Source: Chloroflexota bacterium (GTDB lineage: Bacteria; Chloroflexota; Limnocylindria; P2-11E). Taken from it: a DNA stretch of 34,310 bases. Every line of letters starts with the position of its first letter. Position 1 is the first letter of the stretch. Of this stretch, positions 5,160 through 27,735 are shown piece by piece. The stretch is taken from the NCBI GenBank assembly GCA_005887995.1, contig VBJD01000045.1, positions 1 through 34,310 on the forward strand, in the 5' to 3' direction. The position numbers and the translations under genes are program-made. The notes below the pieces were generated by a model, which saw nothing but the letters and a program-made list of their open reading frames with translations, searched no databases and was not told the DNA's origin.

Positions 5160-6650
5160 GTGCGGGTGGGGTTGGGCATCCAATCGATCGTCGTTATGTT
5201 CGTCTGCGTCGCTGTCGCGACCATGCTCGCCTGTACGCCGACACCACGAACGACCGTGGCGCCGCTCCCTCCCTACGCGTCGGTGCCCGAGGACCCGCTC
5301 ACCCACGTCAAGCCGGGCGACATGCTCGCCTGTGTGACTCGGGAGAACATCCCCCAGATCCCGGCCGCGTTCGACGCGAAGTGGTCGCCCGATTCGACAA
5401 GGCTCGCGGTGACGCGCATCTCGCGCGAGGCGAACCACCGGATGATCACGGGCTACGAAGAGGTACAGCGGCTCTCGATCGTCGACGTGACGACTGGACA
5501 GGTGCACGAGCTCGGCCAGGGGAATAAGCCGGTCTGGTCCGACACCGGCACCTACCTCGCGTACTGGCCGGACGGGAACGACCTCCGGGTCGCACGCGCC
5601 GATGGGCGCCTCGCCGCGATCGTCCCCTCCACCGAGCCGTCGGTCCGCTTCGTCGGCGACGACCTCTACTACTTCTACAAGGACGAGCTCCGCGTCTGGC
5701 ACGACGGCCTGGTCATCACGATCGTGCACGTCGATCCCGACCTCGAGCCGAGGTACCCGCAAGACGACGTCTACTTCAGCGCCGACGCCGAGCGGTTCGT
5801 GATGACCCGCTACTACACCGACGGCTCCGCCGACCGTTACCTCGGAGTCACCGCGACCGGTGTCATGACGCCGCTCGCCGCCGATGGCGCGGTCTTCACG
5901 GAGTGGTCGCCCGTCGGCAAGTCCCTGCTCGTGCGGACGACCAATGACGTCTCGTTGCGCGACCTCGCCGGTGACCAGTGGTCGAAGACGCTCGACGTCA
6001 CGACGCGCATCCACGGCTGGACGGCCGACGGTCGGCTGCTCCTCGGCTCGCTGACGCCGGAGACGCCGGGTGCGATCGCCTTCGATCGGTCGAACGTGTA
6101 CTCGAAGAGCGGTATCGGCGCGCCTGCGACCCTGCCGAACCTCTTCGGCGTGCGCGCGTTCAGCCCCGACGGCCGCTACTTCGCCGGGACCTACCTCGCC
6201 GATCGGCTGACCACGACGCTCGCGCTGTTCAGCTGCGGCAGCGCGACGCCGGACGTCCTGCGCGCGGAGACCGCGGCGCGTGCGCACGTCTCGTCGGTGG
6301 AGGGCGGATTCATCCGACCGGCCTCCGGCGCGATCAGCCAGTTCATGCAGGGCAGCCACACCGGCCTTGACATCTCGGCGCCCTACGGCACGCTCCTGGT
6401 CGCCGCCGACGACGGCGTCGTCGATGAGGTCGGCTGGGTCGCTGTCGGCGGCCGGCGCGTCTGCGTGATGCACGCGGGCGCGCTCGAGAGCTGCTACTAC
6501 CACACCTCCGTGCCGCTGGTGAACATCGGCGAGCGCGTGGTGCGTGGACAGCCGGTCGCGCTCGTCGGCATGACCGGCTTCACCGCGGGGCCGCACACGC
6601 ACTTCGAAGTGAAGCTCGACGGCCGCATCGTCGACCCGCTGAGTTACTAG
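5160..6650 (+). CDS. Lipoprotein M23 family metallopeptidase with TolB-like propeller
   Basis: 496 residues from GTG 5160 (GTG 5166 is also possible). A lipoprotein signal ends around LAC (Cys25). Residues about 60-370 carry propeller-like repeats with KWSPDSTRLAV, PVWSDTGTYLAYW and RAFSPDGRYFA, typical of TolB/WD40-type blades. The C-terminal domain (about 375-496) is a LytM/M23 endopeptidase with the full zinc set: HTGLD (His400, Asp404), His448 in YYHT, and the HTH motif (His479, His481). Such enzymes cut peptide cross-bridges in peptidoglycan; this one should act at the outer face of the membrane. No ribosome site is obvious. It is divergent from the DUF3048 lipoprotein, sharing a roughly 100-base promoter region. 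Confidence 0.9.
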   Translation: MRVGLGIQSIVVMFVCVAVATMLACTPTPRTTVAPLPPYASVPEDPLTHVKPGDMLACVTRENIPQIPAAFDAKWSPDSTRLAVTRISREANHRMITGYEEVQRLSIVDVTTGQVHELGQGNKPVWSDTGTYLAYWPDGNDLRVARADGRLAAIVPSTEPSVRFVGDDLYYFYKDELRVWHDGLVITIVHVDPDLEPRYPQDDVYFSADAERFVMTRYYTDGSADRYLGVTATGVMTPLAADGAVFTEWSPVGKSLLVRTTNDVSLRDLAGDQWSKTLDVTTRIHGWTADGRLLLGSLTPETPGAIAFDRSNVYSKSGIGAPATLPNLFGVRAFSPDGRYFAGTYLADRLTTTLALFSCGSATPDVLRAETAARAHVSSVEGGFIRPASGAISQFMQGSHTGLDISAPYGTLLVAADDGVVDEVGWVAVGGRRVCVMHAGALESCYYHTSVPLVNIGERVVRGQPVALVGMTGFTAGPHTHFEVKLDGRIVDPLSY

Positions 6651-6651
6651 C

Positions 6652-6720
6652 CTAGGAGCCCTGCATCGCGAGCTTGCTCGCGGATGGAGGGCGACGACGG
6701 CTAGACGAGCGAAGCGACTA
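6652..6720. repeat. Structured 69-base repeat, copy A
   Basis: It fills the gap between two convergent genes. The first hairpin runs 6659-6691: CCCT pairs with AGGG, CATC with GATG, and GCGAGC with GCTCGC around a TT loop, with one mismatch and one bulge. It is followed by GACGACG and a weaker second hairpin around GAGCGAAGCG. A second copy of identical length lies at 27558-27626, sharing CTAGGAG, GCGAGCTTGC, CGACGACG and GCGAAGCG at nearly the same offsets. No T-tract follows, so although it could end transcription from both sides, its presence next to a tRNA elsewhere suggests a REP-like dispersed element. Confidence 0.75.
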
Positions 6721-8541
6721 TTAAGCCTCGCGCGCCGACGCCTCGTCGGCCCAGAGGTGCCGCATCTCCTCGGACACGCGCAGCAGCTCGTCGAGCGTCC
6801 CCCGGGAGTCGATGCGACCGTCCTTCAGCACGATGACCTGGTCGGCGCGCCGCAGCGCCGGACGGCGGTGCGACACGGCGAGCGTCGTGTGTACCGTCGC
6901 CGACGCGAACAGGCGATCCCAGAGCACGCGCTCCGTGTCGACGTCGAGCGCGCTCGAGAGGTCGTCGACGACGAGGAGCTCCGCCTCGCGCACGAATGCG
7001 CGCGCGGCCGCGGCGCGCTGGACCTGTCCGCCGGACAGACGCACGCCCTTGGACCCGATGAGCGTGTCGTAGCCCCGGGCGAAGTCCGCGACGTCCTGTT
7101 CGAACGCCGCGGCACGCAGCGCTCGCGCGAGCAGTTCGTCACTCGCGTCGAGCCCGAGGAGGATGTTCTCGCGCAGGGTGCCACTGAAGAGGCGCGGCAG
7201 CTGTGGGACGTACGCGCACCGTGGCGGTATGAAGAAGCGCTCCGGATCCTCGACCAGCTCGCCGTTCCACCGGATCGCGCCTGCGTCGCGGGGGACGAGC
7301 CCTAGCAGGACGCGCAACAGCGTCGTCTTCCCCGCCCCGATCCGCCCCGTGATCACCGTGAACGAGCCGCGCCGGAGCGCGAAGGAGATGTCGGCGATCC
7401 CGGGTGAGCGCGCGTCGTCGCGGCGGTGGCGATAGGCCAGGCCGGACACCTCGAGCACGCGGAGCGGCACCACGGCAGACGGCGCCGTCGAGGCGTGTGG
7501 CAGCGGACCGGACATCGAGAGCGGCGTGCGATCGACGAGCCCGGCTGCGGACACCCCGGTCGAGCCGGCGCGCATCAGGCCGAGCATGCGCGCGACCGAG
7601 ACGCTGAGCAGCTTGTACTGCGTGAGGAACACCCCCGCAAAGCCGCTGAACTCGGTCACGAAGCCCAGGTACGACACGAACAGCGCGAAGTCGCCGACGG
7701 TGAACGAGCCGGTGCGCATCGCCTGCGCGCCGAGCAGCAGGATGAGGCCGGTGCCGACGTACACCGTGTTCCAGTAGATCGACTGCGTGACGAGCGTGAT
7801 GGCGCGCTCGCGAAGCGCGTAGCGCCGCCGCTCCTCGGCGAGCCCGCGGAAGTGCTCCACGACGCCGTCCTCGGCACGCCCGATCTGGATCGCCTGCACG
7901 GCCCCGAGGATCTCGCCGAGCGCGCCGGTCACGCGGCTGGTCGCCTGCTGCGTCGCGGATCGCGATCGCCGCAGGCGTGTGGTCGCGGCCTGCGCGACGA
8001 GCATGATCGCGACCAGCGGGAGGAAGACGAGGATCGCGATCGTCGCGTTGACGCGGATGAGGATCGCCATCGCGACCGCCGCGAAGACGAGATTGCCGAT
8101 CATGTCGACGGTCCAGTCCGCGCCGTTCTCGGCGTGCTCGACGTCGTCGCGGAAGATGCTCTGGGCCTCGCCCGGCGTGCGGTCGAGCGCGCGCGCGCCG
8201 GGACGCCGCAGGACCTCGGCCAGCATGTTCCGCTGGAGCCAGCCGGATACGCCGAAGCGGAAGCCGACGTCGACGACCATCCCGACGACCTGAAAGAACA
8301 GCTCGACCGAGCCGGCGCCGACGAAGAGCGCGGCGAGCCAGAGCACGGTCGGGACGTCGGCGTTGCCGCGCTGCAGCGTGTCGAAGCCGAGCTGCGCCGC
8401 GAGGCCGGGCAGCAGCCGCGAGCAGTAGACGCCGATCCAGAGGATGTTGTCGGCGGTGTACCGCCACGGGCGGAACCAGACCGCGTGCCAGAGGAACCGC
8501 GTCGTGCCAAGACCGTCGTCGGTCCGGACGGACGCGCTCAC
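6721..8541 (-). CDS. ABC exporter subunit (permease fused to ATPase, degenerate ATP site)
   Basis: 606 residues from GTG 8541, whose codon overlaps the stop of the upstream exporter gene (GTGA). The frame stays open further upstream, but only as a shadow of that gene. Residues 30-320 form the six-helix type 1 exporter membrane domain. The nucleotide-binding domain has Walker [10 protein letters not shown] (399-407), signature LSGGQ (502-506), Walker B ELLVVDD (521-527) and switch His558. The catalytic glutamate after Walker B is aspartate (Asp527), the hallmark of the non-hydrolysing half of heterodimeric exporters (TM287/288, BmrCD). The upstream gene supplies the complementary half. The substrate (drug, lipid or peptide) cannot be told from sequence. 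Confidence 0.92.
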
Positions 8542-10280
8542 GCCAGCACCTCCTCGAGACCGATACGCAGCAGCTCGTGGAAGCGCGAGGACGGATCCAC
8601 CGCGAGCGCGTGACGCGGGCCGTGCTCGACCACCCGGCCGTTCTCGAGGATGGCGATCTCGTCGCAGCGCTCGACCGTCGCGAGACGATGCGCGATCACG
8701 ATCGCGGTGCGCCGGTCGAGGAGCTCGTCGATCGCGTTCTCGATGTGGCGTTCGGTCGCGGGATCGAGGCGCGATGAAGCCTCGTCGAGCACGACGAGAC
8801 CCGGGTCGCGCAGGAACACCCGGGCGAAGGCGACGAGCTGCGCCTCGCCGGCGGAGAGCGCACCCGAGCGGAGCTCCGCGTCGAGACCGCGATCGTCCGG
8901 CAATGAGCGGAGCCACGGGCCAAGGCCGATCCGCTCGAGCACATCACGGATCCGCTCGTCGCTGATGGAATGATCGAACAGGGTCAGGTTGTCGCGCACC
9001 GATGCGTGGAAGAGCTGCACGTCCTGCGAGACGAGGGTCGCCCTCGCGCGCACCTCCGCGAGGCGCGCGTCGCGCGCGTCGACGCCTCCGAGGCGGACCG
9101 CGCCCGCGGTCGGGTCGTAGAAGCGCAGGAGCAATCGCGCGAGCGTTGTCTTCCCGCTTCCGGTCCGGCCGAGCACGCCGAGGACCCCGCCGGGCGCGAT
9201 CCGCAGCGATACGTCGCGCAGCACGAGGTCGCTCTCGTACGCGAACGACACGCGATCGAAGTCGACGGCGATGGCACCCCGCGGGATCGCCGCGCCGCGC
9301 CCCTCGGTCAGACGCGACTCGGTGTTGAGGAGCTGCTCGACGCGACCGAGGCTCGCCACCGCGCGCTGGATCTGCTCGAGCTCGCGGCGCAGCTGATCGA
9401 TCGGGCGACGCAGGAGCTCGACGTAGTGGAAGAGCAGATAGACGGTGCCGATCGTCACCGTGCCCGTGGCCCAGAGGTATCCGCCGACCGCGAACGCGAT
9501 GCCGTGGCCGACGGCGAACGTCGCGATCGTGCCCGTCCACAGGAACGTGCCTTTGACGATCGACGCCTTCCGCGTCGCGTACCAATCGCGGTGATGCTGG
9601 ACCAGCCCGTTCATCACGTGCCATTCGGCACCGCTCGAGCGGATGTCCTCGGTGCCCGCGAGGCGCTCGCCGATGAAGCCATACATCTGCGCGGAGACCT
9701 CGCGCACGCGTTCCCATTCGCGGACGGCGACTGTGCGTATCCGCGTGAGCACGCCGAGCGCCGCGAGCGCGAACACGAGGAAGGCGACGCCGGCAAGGAG
9801 GCTCTCGCGCGCCACGACCACGACGATGCCAACGAGCAGGAGCAGGTTGCCGAAGACGTTCACGACGAAAGAGGAGAAGAACGTGGCGAGCGCGACCACG
9901 TCGCCGTCGATGCGCTCGATGAGCTCGCCCGAGGTGCGCGCCTTGTGGAACGTCTGGTCCAGGTGGAGCACGTGGCGAAGGAGGTCGATGCGAGCCTTGT
10001 TCGTCGCCGCCCAGCCGAGATCCTCGCCGACGTAGCGGGCGAACGCATCGAGGATCTGCGTGAGGAAGGCGACGCCCATGAAGACGAGCGCGATCGTCAC
10101 GAGGCTGCTCACCTCGGCGCCCGCGAGCGCGCTGTCGATGAACCGGCGCAGCAGCTGCGGGTTCGCGATCTCCAGCCCGATGGTCAGCAGGAGCAGGAGT
10201 GACAGGAGCGTCGCGCGACGCCACTCGCCACCGAGGTAGCGGGCGAAGAGCTGGAGGTAACGCCGGCGGTCGACGTTCAC
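8538..10280 (-). CDS. ABC exporter subunit (permease fused to ATPase, catalytic half)
   Basis: 580 residues from GTG 10280. Membrane domain about 20-310 (helices starting [15 protein letters not shown]). The ATPase domain has Walker [10 protein letters not shown] (371-379), an altered signature LSAGE (475-479), Walker B LVVLDE with the catalytic Glu500, and switch His531 (IAHRLATV). Having a normal Walker B but an altered signature is the mirror image of its partner, so the two are expected to form a heterodimer with one active and one degenerate site. It is the first gene of a two-gene operon with a 4-base overlap, divergent from the broken cyclase gene; the roughly 90 bases between them should hold its promoter. 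Confidence 0.92.
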
Positions 10281-26464: not shown

Positions 26465-27283
26465 TCAGGGCTCCGTCTCGAAGTCCCACTCCGCGGTCAT
26501 GTCCGTGCCCGAGAGCCGGAGCTCGAATCGGACGTGATAGCGAGACCCGCGCACAAGTGGCTGCGCTGGGACGATCGCGGCGTAGTCGCCCTCGTAGAGC
26601 TGGGGAACGACGTGATACGTGATCTCGCGCCCGGCCCCGTCCGTGAGTCGCGCGGATCGCAGCTCCAACGCGTTCGCGTGCGAGGCAACGAGCATCACTG
26701 GATATCCCACCGGACGCACTGCGCCAAAAGGAAGCACGTCGGGGGACTCGTCCCCATCCCATGAGGCCTGAACGCGCTGACCGCCCGCGGGTGAGCGCAC
26801 CAGATCGGGCGCTGACGAGCTGAAGTCGTAGACGATCACGCCCACCGTCGCGGATCTGGCGCCGGATTCGGCGTGGCCCCACCCCGCAACGATCGCGTGC
26901 GGATGCATGAGGCCAAGACGGTGATACGGCAAGATCCACAGCGACCGCACGCCGTCGGTGCCACTCCCGAAAGATGTCGCGACCTCGCTCGCCGTCGCGT
27001 CGGTGTACCCCTGCGCAGCCAACCGATCTCTGACAGTTGCGCCGGTGAAGCCGTCAGCGCCCGGGGTCTCGTCATGGCCTATCGCGCCGTTGCGTGCGAG
27101 GTACTCGGCATGCCGCTTCGCGGCGGTCGTCACGCGATCGTCGCCGCGGACCGCGGGGACCGAGATCGCGACACGAAGCTCGTTGTGGACGCGGAGCATC
27201 TCATCGGCTGAGTTGGATCCTGACGCGGGAGGCGCGGTCGATGGCTGCGCGGTCGATGGCAGCGCTGCTGCCGACCGCGGCAT
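26465..27283 (-). CDS. CAP (SCP/PR1) domain protein, probably N-terminally truncated
   Basis: 272 residues from ATG 27283; the frame upstream ends at a stop within 16 bases. A Pro/Ser/Thr-rich linker (residues 1-27) leads into a CAP-like domain: MLRVHNELRVAISVPAV, AAKRHAEYLARNGAIGHDE and a later YHRLGLMHPHAIVAGWG. These domains are normally exported, yet there is no signal peptide; a linker-first start like this suggests that the signal region was removed. The lost part would lie where the VgrG-like remnant now begins (27319). A C-terminal domain (about 180-272, ending in the TAEWDFETEP strand) is of a type I do not recognise. Function unknown. Confidence 0.7.
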   Translation of the reverse strand: MPRSAAALPSTAQPSTAPPASGSNSADEMLRVHNELRVAISVPAVRGDDRVTTAAKRHAEYLARNGAIGHDETPGADGFTGATVRDRLAAQGYTDATASEVATSFGSGTDGVRSLWILPYHRLGLMHPHAIVAGWGHAESGARSATVGVIVYDFSSSAPDLVRSPAGGQRVQASWDGDESPDVLPFGAVRPVGYPVMLVASHANALELRSARLTDGAGREITYHVVPQLYEGDYAAIVPAQPLVRGSRYHVRFELRLSGTDMTAEWDFETEP

Positions 27284-27318
27284 GCAGTCTTTGTGTCACG
27301 TGCCGTGCCGCGTCTCCG

Positions 27319-27486
27319 CGGATCCGCGTCGTGCAGCTGTTCTCAGGTTCGGGGCAGGGAACGTTCTGGATCCCAGACAAGGACGACGAGGTGCTCGTCG
27401 CGTTCGAGCACGGCGATCCGGATCGGCCGTACATCGTGGGCAGCCTGTTCAACCCGCGGCGCCCACCGCCCCGGACCGCGAACTGA
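27319..27486 (+). pseudogene. VgrG/gpV-type spike or baseplate gene remnant (C-terminal end)
   Basis: About 55 codons read RIRVVQLFSGSGQGTFWIPD, then DEVLVAFEHGDPDRPYIVGS and LFN before TGA at 27484-27486. The pattern GDEVLVAFEHGD-x-x-RPYVLG-x-L is the signature of the OB-fold of VgrG/gp5 spike proteins of contractile injection systems (T6SS, eCIS, phage tails). Everything upstream of the OB-fold is missing, and the frame leads into sequence antisense to the CAP gene. The final A of the stop codon is also the 3' terminal base of the tRNA-Thr gene on the other strand. It cannot be functional alone. Confidence 0.75.
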
Positions 27487-27558
27487 GCCGACGGGCAGAC
27501 TCGAACTGCCGACCGGCGGTTTACGAAACCGCTGCTCTACCGGCTGAGCTACGTCGGC
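27486..27558 (-). tRNA. tRNA-Thr (anticodon CGT)
   Basis: Read on the minus strand, it folds into a full cloverleaf: acceptor GCCGACG/CGTCGGC, D-arm GCTC/GAGC, anticodon stem GCGGT/ACCGC with loop TTCGTAA (anticodon CGT, decoding ACG), five-base variable loop, and T-arm GGCAG/CTGCC with loop TTCGAGT. Discriminator T; CCA is not encoded. ACG is a common Thr codon in this GC-rich DNA. Confidence 0.97.
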
Positions 27559-27626
27559 TAGGAGGGACATCCGGCGAGCTTGCCCGCCGAGGGTCCCGAC
27601 GACGCCGACAAGGCGCGAAGCGCCTA
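27558..27626. repeat. Structured 69-base repeat, copy B
   Basis: Second copy of the element at 6652-6720, of identical length and shared block order. Its outer stem is GGGA/TCCC where copy A has CCCT/AGGG; both pair. The inner stem is CGGCG/CGCCG around a GAGCTTGC core. A second hairpin here is stronger than in copy A: AGGCGC, loop GAA, GCGCCT, flanked by GCCGAC/GTCGGC just beyond the element. It abuts the 5' end of the tRNA-Thr gene and lies upstream of the amidohydrolase gene, so it is not simply a terminator between convergent genes. Confidence 0.75.
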
Positions 27627-27735
27627 CGTCGGCCCGCACTGGAGATTTTCGCATGTTCTGAACGTCCGCGCTGCGGCCCGGGACAAGGGCGGGGACGTCA
27701 GCAGTGATCGCCATGCGCGCGTACTCTCTCGGCTC

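What the first reader, a model, noticed from the sequence alone, without database searches (positions are those of the whole stretch)
6652..6720. Two-copy 69-base double-hairpin repeat with compensatory stem changes
Copies at 6652 and 27558 have the same length and share CTAGGAG, GCGAGCTTGC, CGACGACG and GCGAAGCG at nearly the same offsets. The outer stem is CCCT/AGGG in one and GGGA/TCCC in the other, so the pairing is kept while the sequence is changed. That favours selection on a folded DNA or RNA shape. Inference: a REP-like dispersed element or a structured RNA common to this clade.
Basis: seen in the sequence. Interest (0 to 1): 0.65.

Follow-up and report, generated by a model that had tools for sequence, protein, structure and literature searches.

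The report
Hairpin insertion that mirrors its target
A ~75-base double-hairpin DNA element, scattered through one family of soil Chloroflexota, inserts right beside genes (above all at the exact start of tRNA genes) and carries inside it both a copy and a complement of the 9 bases it landed next to, which no transposon recalled or found here does.

Summary
Both window copies belong to a family with ~60 copies in 22 of 28 genomes of one GTDB family (Chloroflexota) and none in 149 other genomes of the class. The unit is X1 | TAGGAG-hairpin1-CGACGAC | X' | GNA-loop hairpin2 | X2. X1 is the host flank (TACN5C), X' is its reverse complement, and X2, where it persists, is a direct copy of it. X1:X' and hairpin 1 co-vary strongly (85% of cells paired, covariation 0.51 against 0.16 shuffled). 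About half the copies abut nucleotide 1 of a tRNA gene on the other strand; others lie at ORF ends or tRNA 3' ends. Relatives with empty tRNA-Thr and groEL sites show that it is an insertion; at tRNA-Thr it leaves an exact 9-nt direct repeat. No Y1/RAYT transposase was found in 28 genomes, and a reverse transcriptase in only one. Best reading: a REP-like, non-autonomous palindromic insertion whose arms are copied from, or kept matched to, the target, probably by hairpin-primed copying (inferred). The enzyme is unknown. It is not a classical REP/RAYT member.

The parts
6644..6652 (+). Copy 1, left arm X1 (TTACTAGCC); includes the TAG stop codon of the upstream M23-peptidase ORF (5160-6650)
6653..6658 (+). 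Copy 1, conserved TAGGAG strand of the internal loop
6659..6691 (+). Copy 1, hairpin 1 (CCCT..GAGCTTGCTC..AGGG) with a one-base bulge on the 3' arm
6692..6698 (+). Copy 1, conserved CGACGAC strand of the internal loop
6699..6704 (+). Copy 1, X' (GGCTAG), reverse complement of the end of X1 (CTAGCC)
6705..6719 (+). Copy 1, hairpin 2 with GNA-type loop (GAGC-GAA-GCGA)
6719..6727 (+). Copy 1, decayed X2 (TATTAAGCC, 5 of 9 equal to X1); overlaps the end of the convergent ABC-transporter ORF (6721-8916, -)
27485..27558 (-). tRNA-Thr(CGT); its nucleotide 1 is the left boundary of copy 2
27550..27558 (+). Copy 2, left arm X1 (TACGTCGGC) = complement of tRNA-Thr nt 1-9
27559..27633 (+). Copy 2, inserted stretch (75 bp) as defined by empty sites in relatives
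   Evidence: the tRNA end is followed directly by the native flank in G003, G018, G020, G026
27559..27564 (+). Copy 2, TAGGAG
27565..27596 (+). Copy 2, hairpin 1 (GGAC..GAGCTTGCCC..GTCC)
27597..27603 (+). Copy 2, CGACGAC
27604..27609 (+). Copy 2, X' (GCCGAC), reverse complement of the end of X1
27610..27624 (+). Copy 2, hairpin 2 (GGCGC-GAA-GCGCC)
27625..27633 (+). Copy 2, X2 (TACGTCGGC), exact 9-nt direct copy of X1

Best explanation
A non-autonomous palindromic insertion element, REP-like in look. SHOWN: it sits 3' of a TACN5C target, with a strong preference for the exact 5' ends of tRNA genes; at the tRNA-Thr site it is an insertion that left a 9-nt direct repeat (X1, X2); between the repeats it has a constant hairpin module, an arm X' complementary to the target, and a GNA-loop mini-hairpin. 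SHOWN: X' follows the host flank rather than the element's lineage, and X1:X' and hairpin 1 stay paired over long vertical descent. INFERRED (most likely mechanism): the element acts as folded single-stranded DNA. A nascent or nicked 3' end at X1 is joined to, or switches onto, the element's TAGGAG end. Hairpin 1 folds back and brings CGACGAC next to X1, X1 is copied into X', and the GNA hairpin then turns the strand back so that X' is copied into X2, which re-anneals to the original template. The same hairpin-templated copying later keeps the arms matched. The enzyme that starts this, if there is one, was not found.
For: Family: CM search gives ~60 copies in 22-23 of 28 family genomes and 0 of 149 others in the class. 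Structure: 50-copy alignment, 85% of cells paired, covariation 0.506 against 0.159 shuffled and at most 0.118 slid; 7 of 9 X1:X' pairs have changes on both sides. X1:X' fit 7.45 of 9 against 5.86+-0.12 with X1 permuted; non-tRNA-5' copies 7.06 against 5.48+-0.16. X' identity correlates with X1 identity (rho 0.55), hardly with hairpin-1 identity (0.14). Empty sites: tRNA-Thr in G003, G018, G020, G026 and others against filled G000, G004, G002, with an exact 9-nt repeat in G000 and G004; groEL end filled in G000 and G025, without this element in the other ends read. Target rule: 28 of 29 tRNA-5' insertions are on TAC...C tRNAs (79 such flanks, 28 filled; 77 other flanks, 1 filled). GNA loop in 49 of 65 copies against 12% in control windows; GNA mini-hairpins are exceptionally stable as DNA (PMC4686876). 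Polymerase copying of one palindrome arm from the other is an established bacterial process (PMC7202029).
Against: Fold-back copying at insertion is not observed directly; no pre- and post-insertion pair within one species was available. Several copies have X1:X' mismatches (for example the recurrent position-5 G.A mismatches in G009) and many lack X2, which needs decay or a second route. Persistence of X1:X' at the syntenic tRNA-Met site across genera could also mean selection on a host function. No transposase was identified, and the genomes are incomplete MAGs.
Confidence: 0.55

Rival explanations
1. A single-strand transposon derivative of IS200/IS605 type: X' is a 9-nt guide inside the element that pairs with the left flank (X1) and with the right end (X2) to choose cleavage and target sites, mobilised in trans by a Y1 enzyme that is lost or outside the assembled genomes.
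For: Geometry is like IS608, where internal guides pair with both cleavage sites and set target choice (PMC8266576); two end hairpins; tandem copies sharing X2 as the next X1 (L246, L253).
Against: PF01797 absent from all 28 family genomes with a positive control. Guides would be inherited with the element, yet X' follows the target and not the element lineage. Many different X', each matching its own tRNA, would need repeated coordinated changes of X' and X2.
Confidence: 0.2
2. A cis-acting RNA element (tRNA leader or 3'-UTR switch) kept by selection: X' pairs alternatively with the tRNA 5' strand (X1) or with its copy X2.
For: Covariation; syntenic tRNA-Met site in most genera with X1 and X' changed together (GGGCCCG to GGGCCTG in G018 and G027); in predicted pre-tRNA folds X'' often captures tRNA nt 1-7 while X2' takes over the acceptor role.
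Against: No constant position or strand relative to genes: antisense to tRNAs 5', sense at tRNA 3' ends, after stop codons, between divergent genes. Absent from the same genes in relatives. X2 decays while X' stays. The constant loop is one known to be stable as DNA.
Confidence: 0.15
3. A classical REP/BIME spread by a RAYT.
For: Short bulged palindrome with an AGGAG-like foot, intergenic, fast-changing stems; a Pseudomonas-like GGGAGCTTGCTCCC core is recalled, not tested.
Against: No RAYT; 1-18 copies per genome; no GTAG tag; outer arms mirror the target, which the REP papers read here do not describe.
Confidence: 0.06
4. Retro-insertion: cDNA of a tRNA runs off at its 5' end and the polymerase jumps to the element RNA.
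For: Junction exactly at tRNA nt 1 in about half the copies.
Against: Reverse transcriptase (PF00078) in only 1 of 28 genomes; ORF-end and tRNA-3' insertions are not RNA 5' ends; does not give X2 from the new site.
Confidence: 0.03

Closest known systems
REPs (GTAG/CGTC-tagged palindromes) with RAYT/TnpA-REP
   Same: Short bulged palindrome with a tag at its foot; intergenic; stems change while pairing is kept; on the minus strand the palindrome follows CGTCGTC, like CGTC-tagged REPs, which 'apparently lack a dedicated transposase'. T. roseum GTAG-23 REPs lie inside small degenerate palindromes (PMC3733652).
   Different: No RAYT; few copies; second GNA hairpin; outer arms that are the target and its complement; 9-nt direct repeat; docking at tRNA 5' ends.
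IS200/IS605 elements (IS608, ISDra2)
   Same: Hairpin ends; internal guide complementary to flanking cleavage site; target set by base pairing (PMC8266576).
   Different: Guide 9 nt rather than 4, placed 3' of the hairpin and differing from copy to copy with the target; direct repeat formed; no Y1 gene.
IS110 bridge-RNA elements
   Same: Target chosen by complementarity to a structured nucleic acid of the element (PMC11208160).
   Different: Element only ~75 bp, non-coding; the complement lies in the inserted DNA itself. An IS110 recombinase search was not made.
Quasi-palindrome template-switch mutagenesis
   Same: Arms of a palindrome are copied from each other during replication, which makes an imperfect palindrome more perfect (PMC7202029).
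   Different: Known as a mutation process at existing palindromes, not as the way a dispersed element takes on a new target's sequence.
Bacterial MITEs (NEMIS, RUP, ERIC)
   Same: Short, non-coding, intergenic, direct repeats at the ends.
   Different: No terminal inverted repeats of its own; no related insertion sequence known.

Membership tests
REP / RAYT | RAYT (Y1, PF01797) in genomes that carry the repeats | tested here: not met
   0 of 28 family genomes; control genomes positive
REP / RAYT | GTAG (or close) tag at the foot of a 20-40 nt palindrome | tested here: not met
   Near-invariant foot is TAGGAG / CGACGAC
REP / RAYT | High copy number (tens to hundreds) | tested here: not met
   1-18 per genome, incomplete MAGs
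CGTC-tagged REP | CGTC beside the palindrome, 8-9 bp stem, tail CCA, no dedicated transposase | tested here: inconclusive
   CGTCGTC precedes hairpin 1 on the minus strand and no Y1 gene was found, but the stem is ~12 bp with a bulge and there is no CCA tail
IS200/IS605-type element | Y1 HUH transposase | tested here: not met
IS200/IS605-type element | Internal guide pairing with flanking cleavage site | tested here: met
   X1:X' pairing; but X' differs from copy to copy with the target
IS200/IS605-type element | Insertion without target-site duplication (own knowledge) | tested here: not met
   9-nt direct repeat at the tRNA-Thr site
MITE of a DDE transposon | Terminal inverted repeats fixed in sequence | tested here: not met
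   Ends TAGGAG and X2 are unrelated; only X1:X' are complementary and they vary
Integron attC | RYYYAAC / GTTRRRY core boxes at the outer ends | tested here: not met
   Outer arms are TACN5C / GN5GTA; an IntI search was not made
IS110 / bridge RNA | IS110 recombinase and bridge RNA adjacent | not tested
   No family search made for PF01548/PF02371
Known structured RNA (Rfam) | Match to any of 4227 families | tested here: not met
   Only tRNA matched in the window
Retroelement | Reverse transcriptase in carrier genomes | tested here: not met
   PF00078 in 1 of 28 genomes

The most novel reading that the evidence does not exclude
A self-tailoring insertion element: at each jump its internal arm X' and right end X2 are newly written by copying the target through the element's own DNA hairpins, so that each copy becomes a palindrome-protected, precisely excisable insertion, with no dedicated transposase. 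Different hairpin modules with the same X1-hairpin-X'-hairpin-X2 plan at other tRNA 5' ends would make this a general class rather than one family.
Probability: 0.3. Interest if true: 0.87.

Novelty: new variant of a known kind. Interest (0 to 1): 0.64.

Why it matters
REP-like palindromes are widespread in bacteria, and how those without a RAYT spread is an open question (PMC3733652 says so for CGTC repeats). Here the element carries a record of its insertion site, so the spreading step can be read from sequence: the target rule, the direct repeat, and an arm that matches the target. If the arm is written at insertion, this would be DNA mobility by hairpin-primed copying rather than by a transposase with fixed ends. 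It would also explain tRNA 5' ends as landing sites (TAC from A9, U8 and G7, final C from G1). Short of that, it is a well-defined new repeat family with unusual anatomy and a clean set of empty sites.

Tried and rejected
Chance resemblance: rejected. Rfam family: none. RAYT/Y1: none. Reverse transcriptase route: RT in only 1 of 28 genomes. First genome patterns used wrong spacers and missed the window's own copies. Whole-collection pattern scan of genome contigs was swamped by chance hits; the one real copy recognised, L154, is on a contig (VBFY01000063.1, 'Chloroflexi bacterium CF_64') that contains the fetched 4 kb of G002:C70 exactly and has the same length, which gave the phylum. Phage and plasmid carriage: no BLAST match (copy 2 against plasmids, copy 1 against phages), and 11 viral pattern hits without the hairpin or X1:X'. 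Terminator: no T-run at the window copies; the groEL copy lies before that gene's own terminator-like hairpin. attC: core boxes absent. An exact triple scan X..X'..X was weakly specific on its own (53 hits against 38 shuffled in family loci), though the TAGGAG hits stood out. In one search X' was taken one base late, so its 'own-fit' columns are not used; the correlations do not depend on that.

Full report
Observation. Both copies are in the window as described. The shared words lie at matching offsets and the outer stem of hairpin 1 is swapped from CCCT/AGGG to GGGAC/GTCCC. TAGGAGN{25,50}CGACGACG is found twice in the window against 0.03 expected. Rfam knows nothing here except the tRNA.

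What the unit really is. Reading the other genomic copies showed that the flanks belong to the structure. From left to right: X1, 9 nt of host sequence, consensus TACN5C; TAGGAG; hairpin 1 (~32 nt, loop GAG-CTTG/CTCG-CTC, usually with a bulge on the 3' arm); CGACGAC; X', the reverse complement of X1; hairpin 2 with a GNA loop; and, in the best-kept copies, X2, a direct copy of X1. In window copy 2, X1 is the complement of nucleotides 1-9 of tRNA-Thr(CGT), and TAGGAG begins at the base next to tRNA nucleotide 1. In copy 1, X1 holds the stop codon of an M23-peptidase ORF, and the right end runs into the stop of a convergent ABC-transporter ORF.

Family and range. A covariance model of 31 copies finds about 60 copies at E<0.01 in the 28 genomes of the GTDB family (G009 18 and G000 8 at E<=0.1, most others 1-6) and none in 149 other genomes of the class.

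Pairing evidence. On 50 aligned copies the full structure (X1:X' plus hairpin 1) has 85.0% standard pairs, against 62.6+-1.0% shuffled and at most 43% when slid. The covariation score is 0.506 against 0.159+-0.012, with 0 of 500 shuffles reaching it. Seven of nine X1:X' pairs and all twelve hairpin-1 pairs have changes on both sides. Permuting X1 among copies drops the fit from 7.45 to 5.86+-0.12 of 9; for copies not at tRNA 5' ends, from 7.06 to 5.48+-0.16. X' resembles another copy's X' when the targets resemble each other (rho 0.55), hardly when the hairpins do (rho 0.14); among pairs with >=85% identical hairpin 1 the X1-X' correlation is 0.80 (20 pairs). Hairpin 1 of a G009 non-tRNA copy is identical to that of the G022 tRNA-Met copy while X' differs.

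Insertion. The tRNA-Thr(CGT) 5' flank is '...CTACGTCGGC|GCGGATTTCC...' or close to it in relatives without the element (G003, G018, G020, G026, and, as GGGGATTTCC, a second G002 locus). It is '...CTACGTCGGC|TAGGAG...TACGTCGGC|GCGGATTTCC...' in G004, the same in G002 with one changed base in X1, and in G000 with TACGTCGGC|CCGCACTGG. So the inserted stretch is TAGGAG...X2, and it leaves a 9-nt direct repeat. The groEL 3' end carries the element in G000 and G025; the other groEL ends that could be read run from the stop codon to the terminator without it, with a different hairpin in G018. Tandem units share X2 as the next X1 (L246, L253).

Target rule. Of 156 distinct tRNA 5' flanks gathered, 79 end in TAC...C and 28 of these are filled; 77 do not and 1 is filled. 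This sample was enriched for carriers. In the tRNA survey of four genomes the four filled G000 sites are all TAC sites. Other copies mostly follow YACR-N4-C at ORF ends, tRNA 3' ends and between divergent genes. In L218, L245, L257 and L267 the element's own TAG serves as the stop codon of the ORF end.

Vertical persistence. The tRNA-Met site is syntenic across most of the family (many neighbouring proteins 65-99% identical). Within it X1 and X' changed together (GGGCCCG to GGGCCTG in G018 and G027) and hairpin 1 changed heavily while staying paired (for example G002 against G003, with a neighbour 96% identical). X2 is often decayed there. So something keeps X1:X' matched after insertion: selection, or arm-to-arm copying. 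The latter is an established bacterial process (PMC7202029) and would make clustered matched changes such as those between the G002 and G004 tRNA-Thr copies (GGCCAAG/CTTGGCC against GACTGAG/CTCAGTC).

DNA or RNA. The hairpin-2 loop is GNA in 49 of 65 copies against 12% in control windows, while its stem varies. GNA mini-hairpins are exceptionally stable as DNA (PMC4686876), which favours a single-strand DNA form. As RNA, the tRNA-strand transcript can fold with X'' capturing the tRNA 5' strand and X2' replacing it in the acceptor stem. This keeps a regulatory-RNA rival alive, but copies have no constant strand or place relative to genes.

Enzymes. PF01797 (Y1, including RAYTs) is absent from all 28 genomes, with controls positive. 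PF00078 occurs in only one. IS110 and IntI were not searched. No phage or plasmid carrier was found.

Mechanism offered. Shown: target rule, direct repeat, target-matching X', paired evolution. Inferred: the element invades as folded single strand at X1|. Hairpin 1 folds back so that the 3' end CGACGAC is extended on X1 (making X'). The GNA hairpin then turns the strand so that X' is copied to X2, which re-anneals to the genomic template; the required TAC/GTA and C/G matches would be the microhomologies. The main rival is an IS608-like guide used by a lost Y1 enzyme.

Membership. It looks like a REP but fails three tested REP/RAYT features (RAYT, tag, copy number), and it fails the Y1 and no-duplication tests of IS200/IS605. 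It shares a CGTC-side motif with the orphan CGTC REPs, and T. roseum REPs inside small degenerate palindromes are a precedent worth re-reading (PMC3733652). I file it as a new variant of small palindromic bacterial repeats. Other hairpin modules with the same plan at tRNA 5' ends (7 untagged flanks against 1.6 by permutation, 0 of 300 reaching 7; one of these, L210, is a degenerate TAGGAG copy) suggest that the plan may be wider than this family.

Noticed in passing
L200/L298 (G012 tRNA-Ala), L293 (G007 tRNA-Ala), L314 (G006 tRNA-Thr), L315 (G007 tRNA-Thr), L325 (G023 tRNA-Trp), L417 (G006 tRNA-Arg): Other tRNA 5' ends carry different perfect or near-perfect hairpins followed at once by a complement of the tRNA 5' end and mostly a further hairpin and copy: same plan without TAGGAG/CGACGACG.
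   Followed up: partly
window 27485-27527 and hits in G006, G001, G003, G022: The 3' ~45 nt of tRNA-Thr(CGT) recurs several times at 93-100% identity in some relatives, as expected of attachment-site remnants of integrated elements; the full tRNA is 100% identical in several genera.
   Followed up: no
window 27094-27486: A 130-aa ORF with a Phage_base_V / T6SS baseplate OB domain ends exactly at the 3' end of the tRNA-Thr gene.
   Followed up: no
L449 (G018 groEL 3' end): A different hairpin stretch (TCGGAGCGGCGAAAGCCGCGAAGGTTAG...) follows the groEL stop codon, with a GTTAG that could pair with the CTAA of the gene end.
   Followed up: no
G002 contig C98 (L249, L313): Two tRNA-Thr(CGT) 5' ends 1.9 kb apart: an intact tRNA with an empty site, and a tRNA-like end not called by ARAGORN that carries the element.
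   Followed up: no
L241/L293 (G007) and L250/L298 (G012): tRNA-Ala(CGC) is flanked on both sides: a TAGGAG-type element at its 3' end and another hairpin insertion at its 5' end.
   Followed up: no
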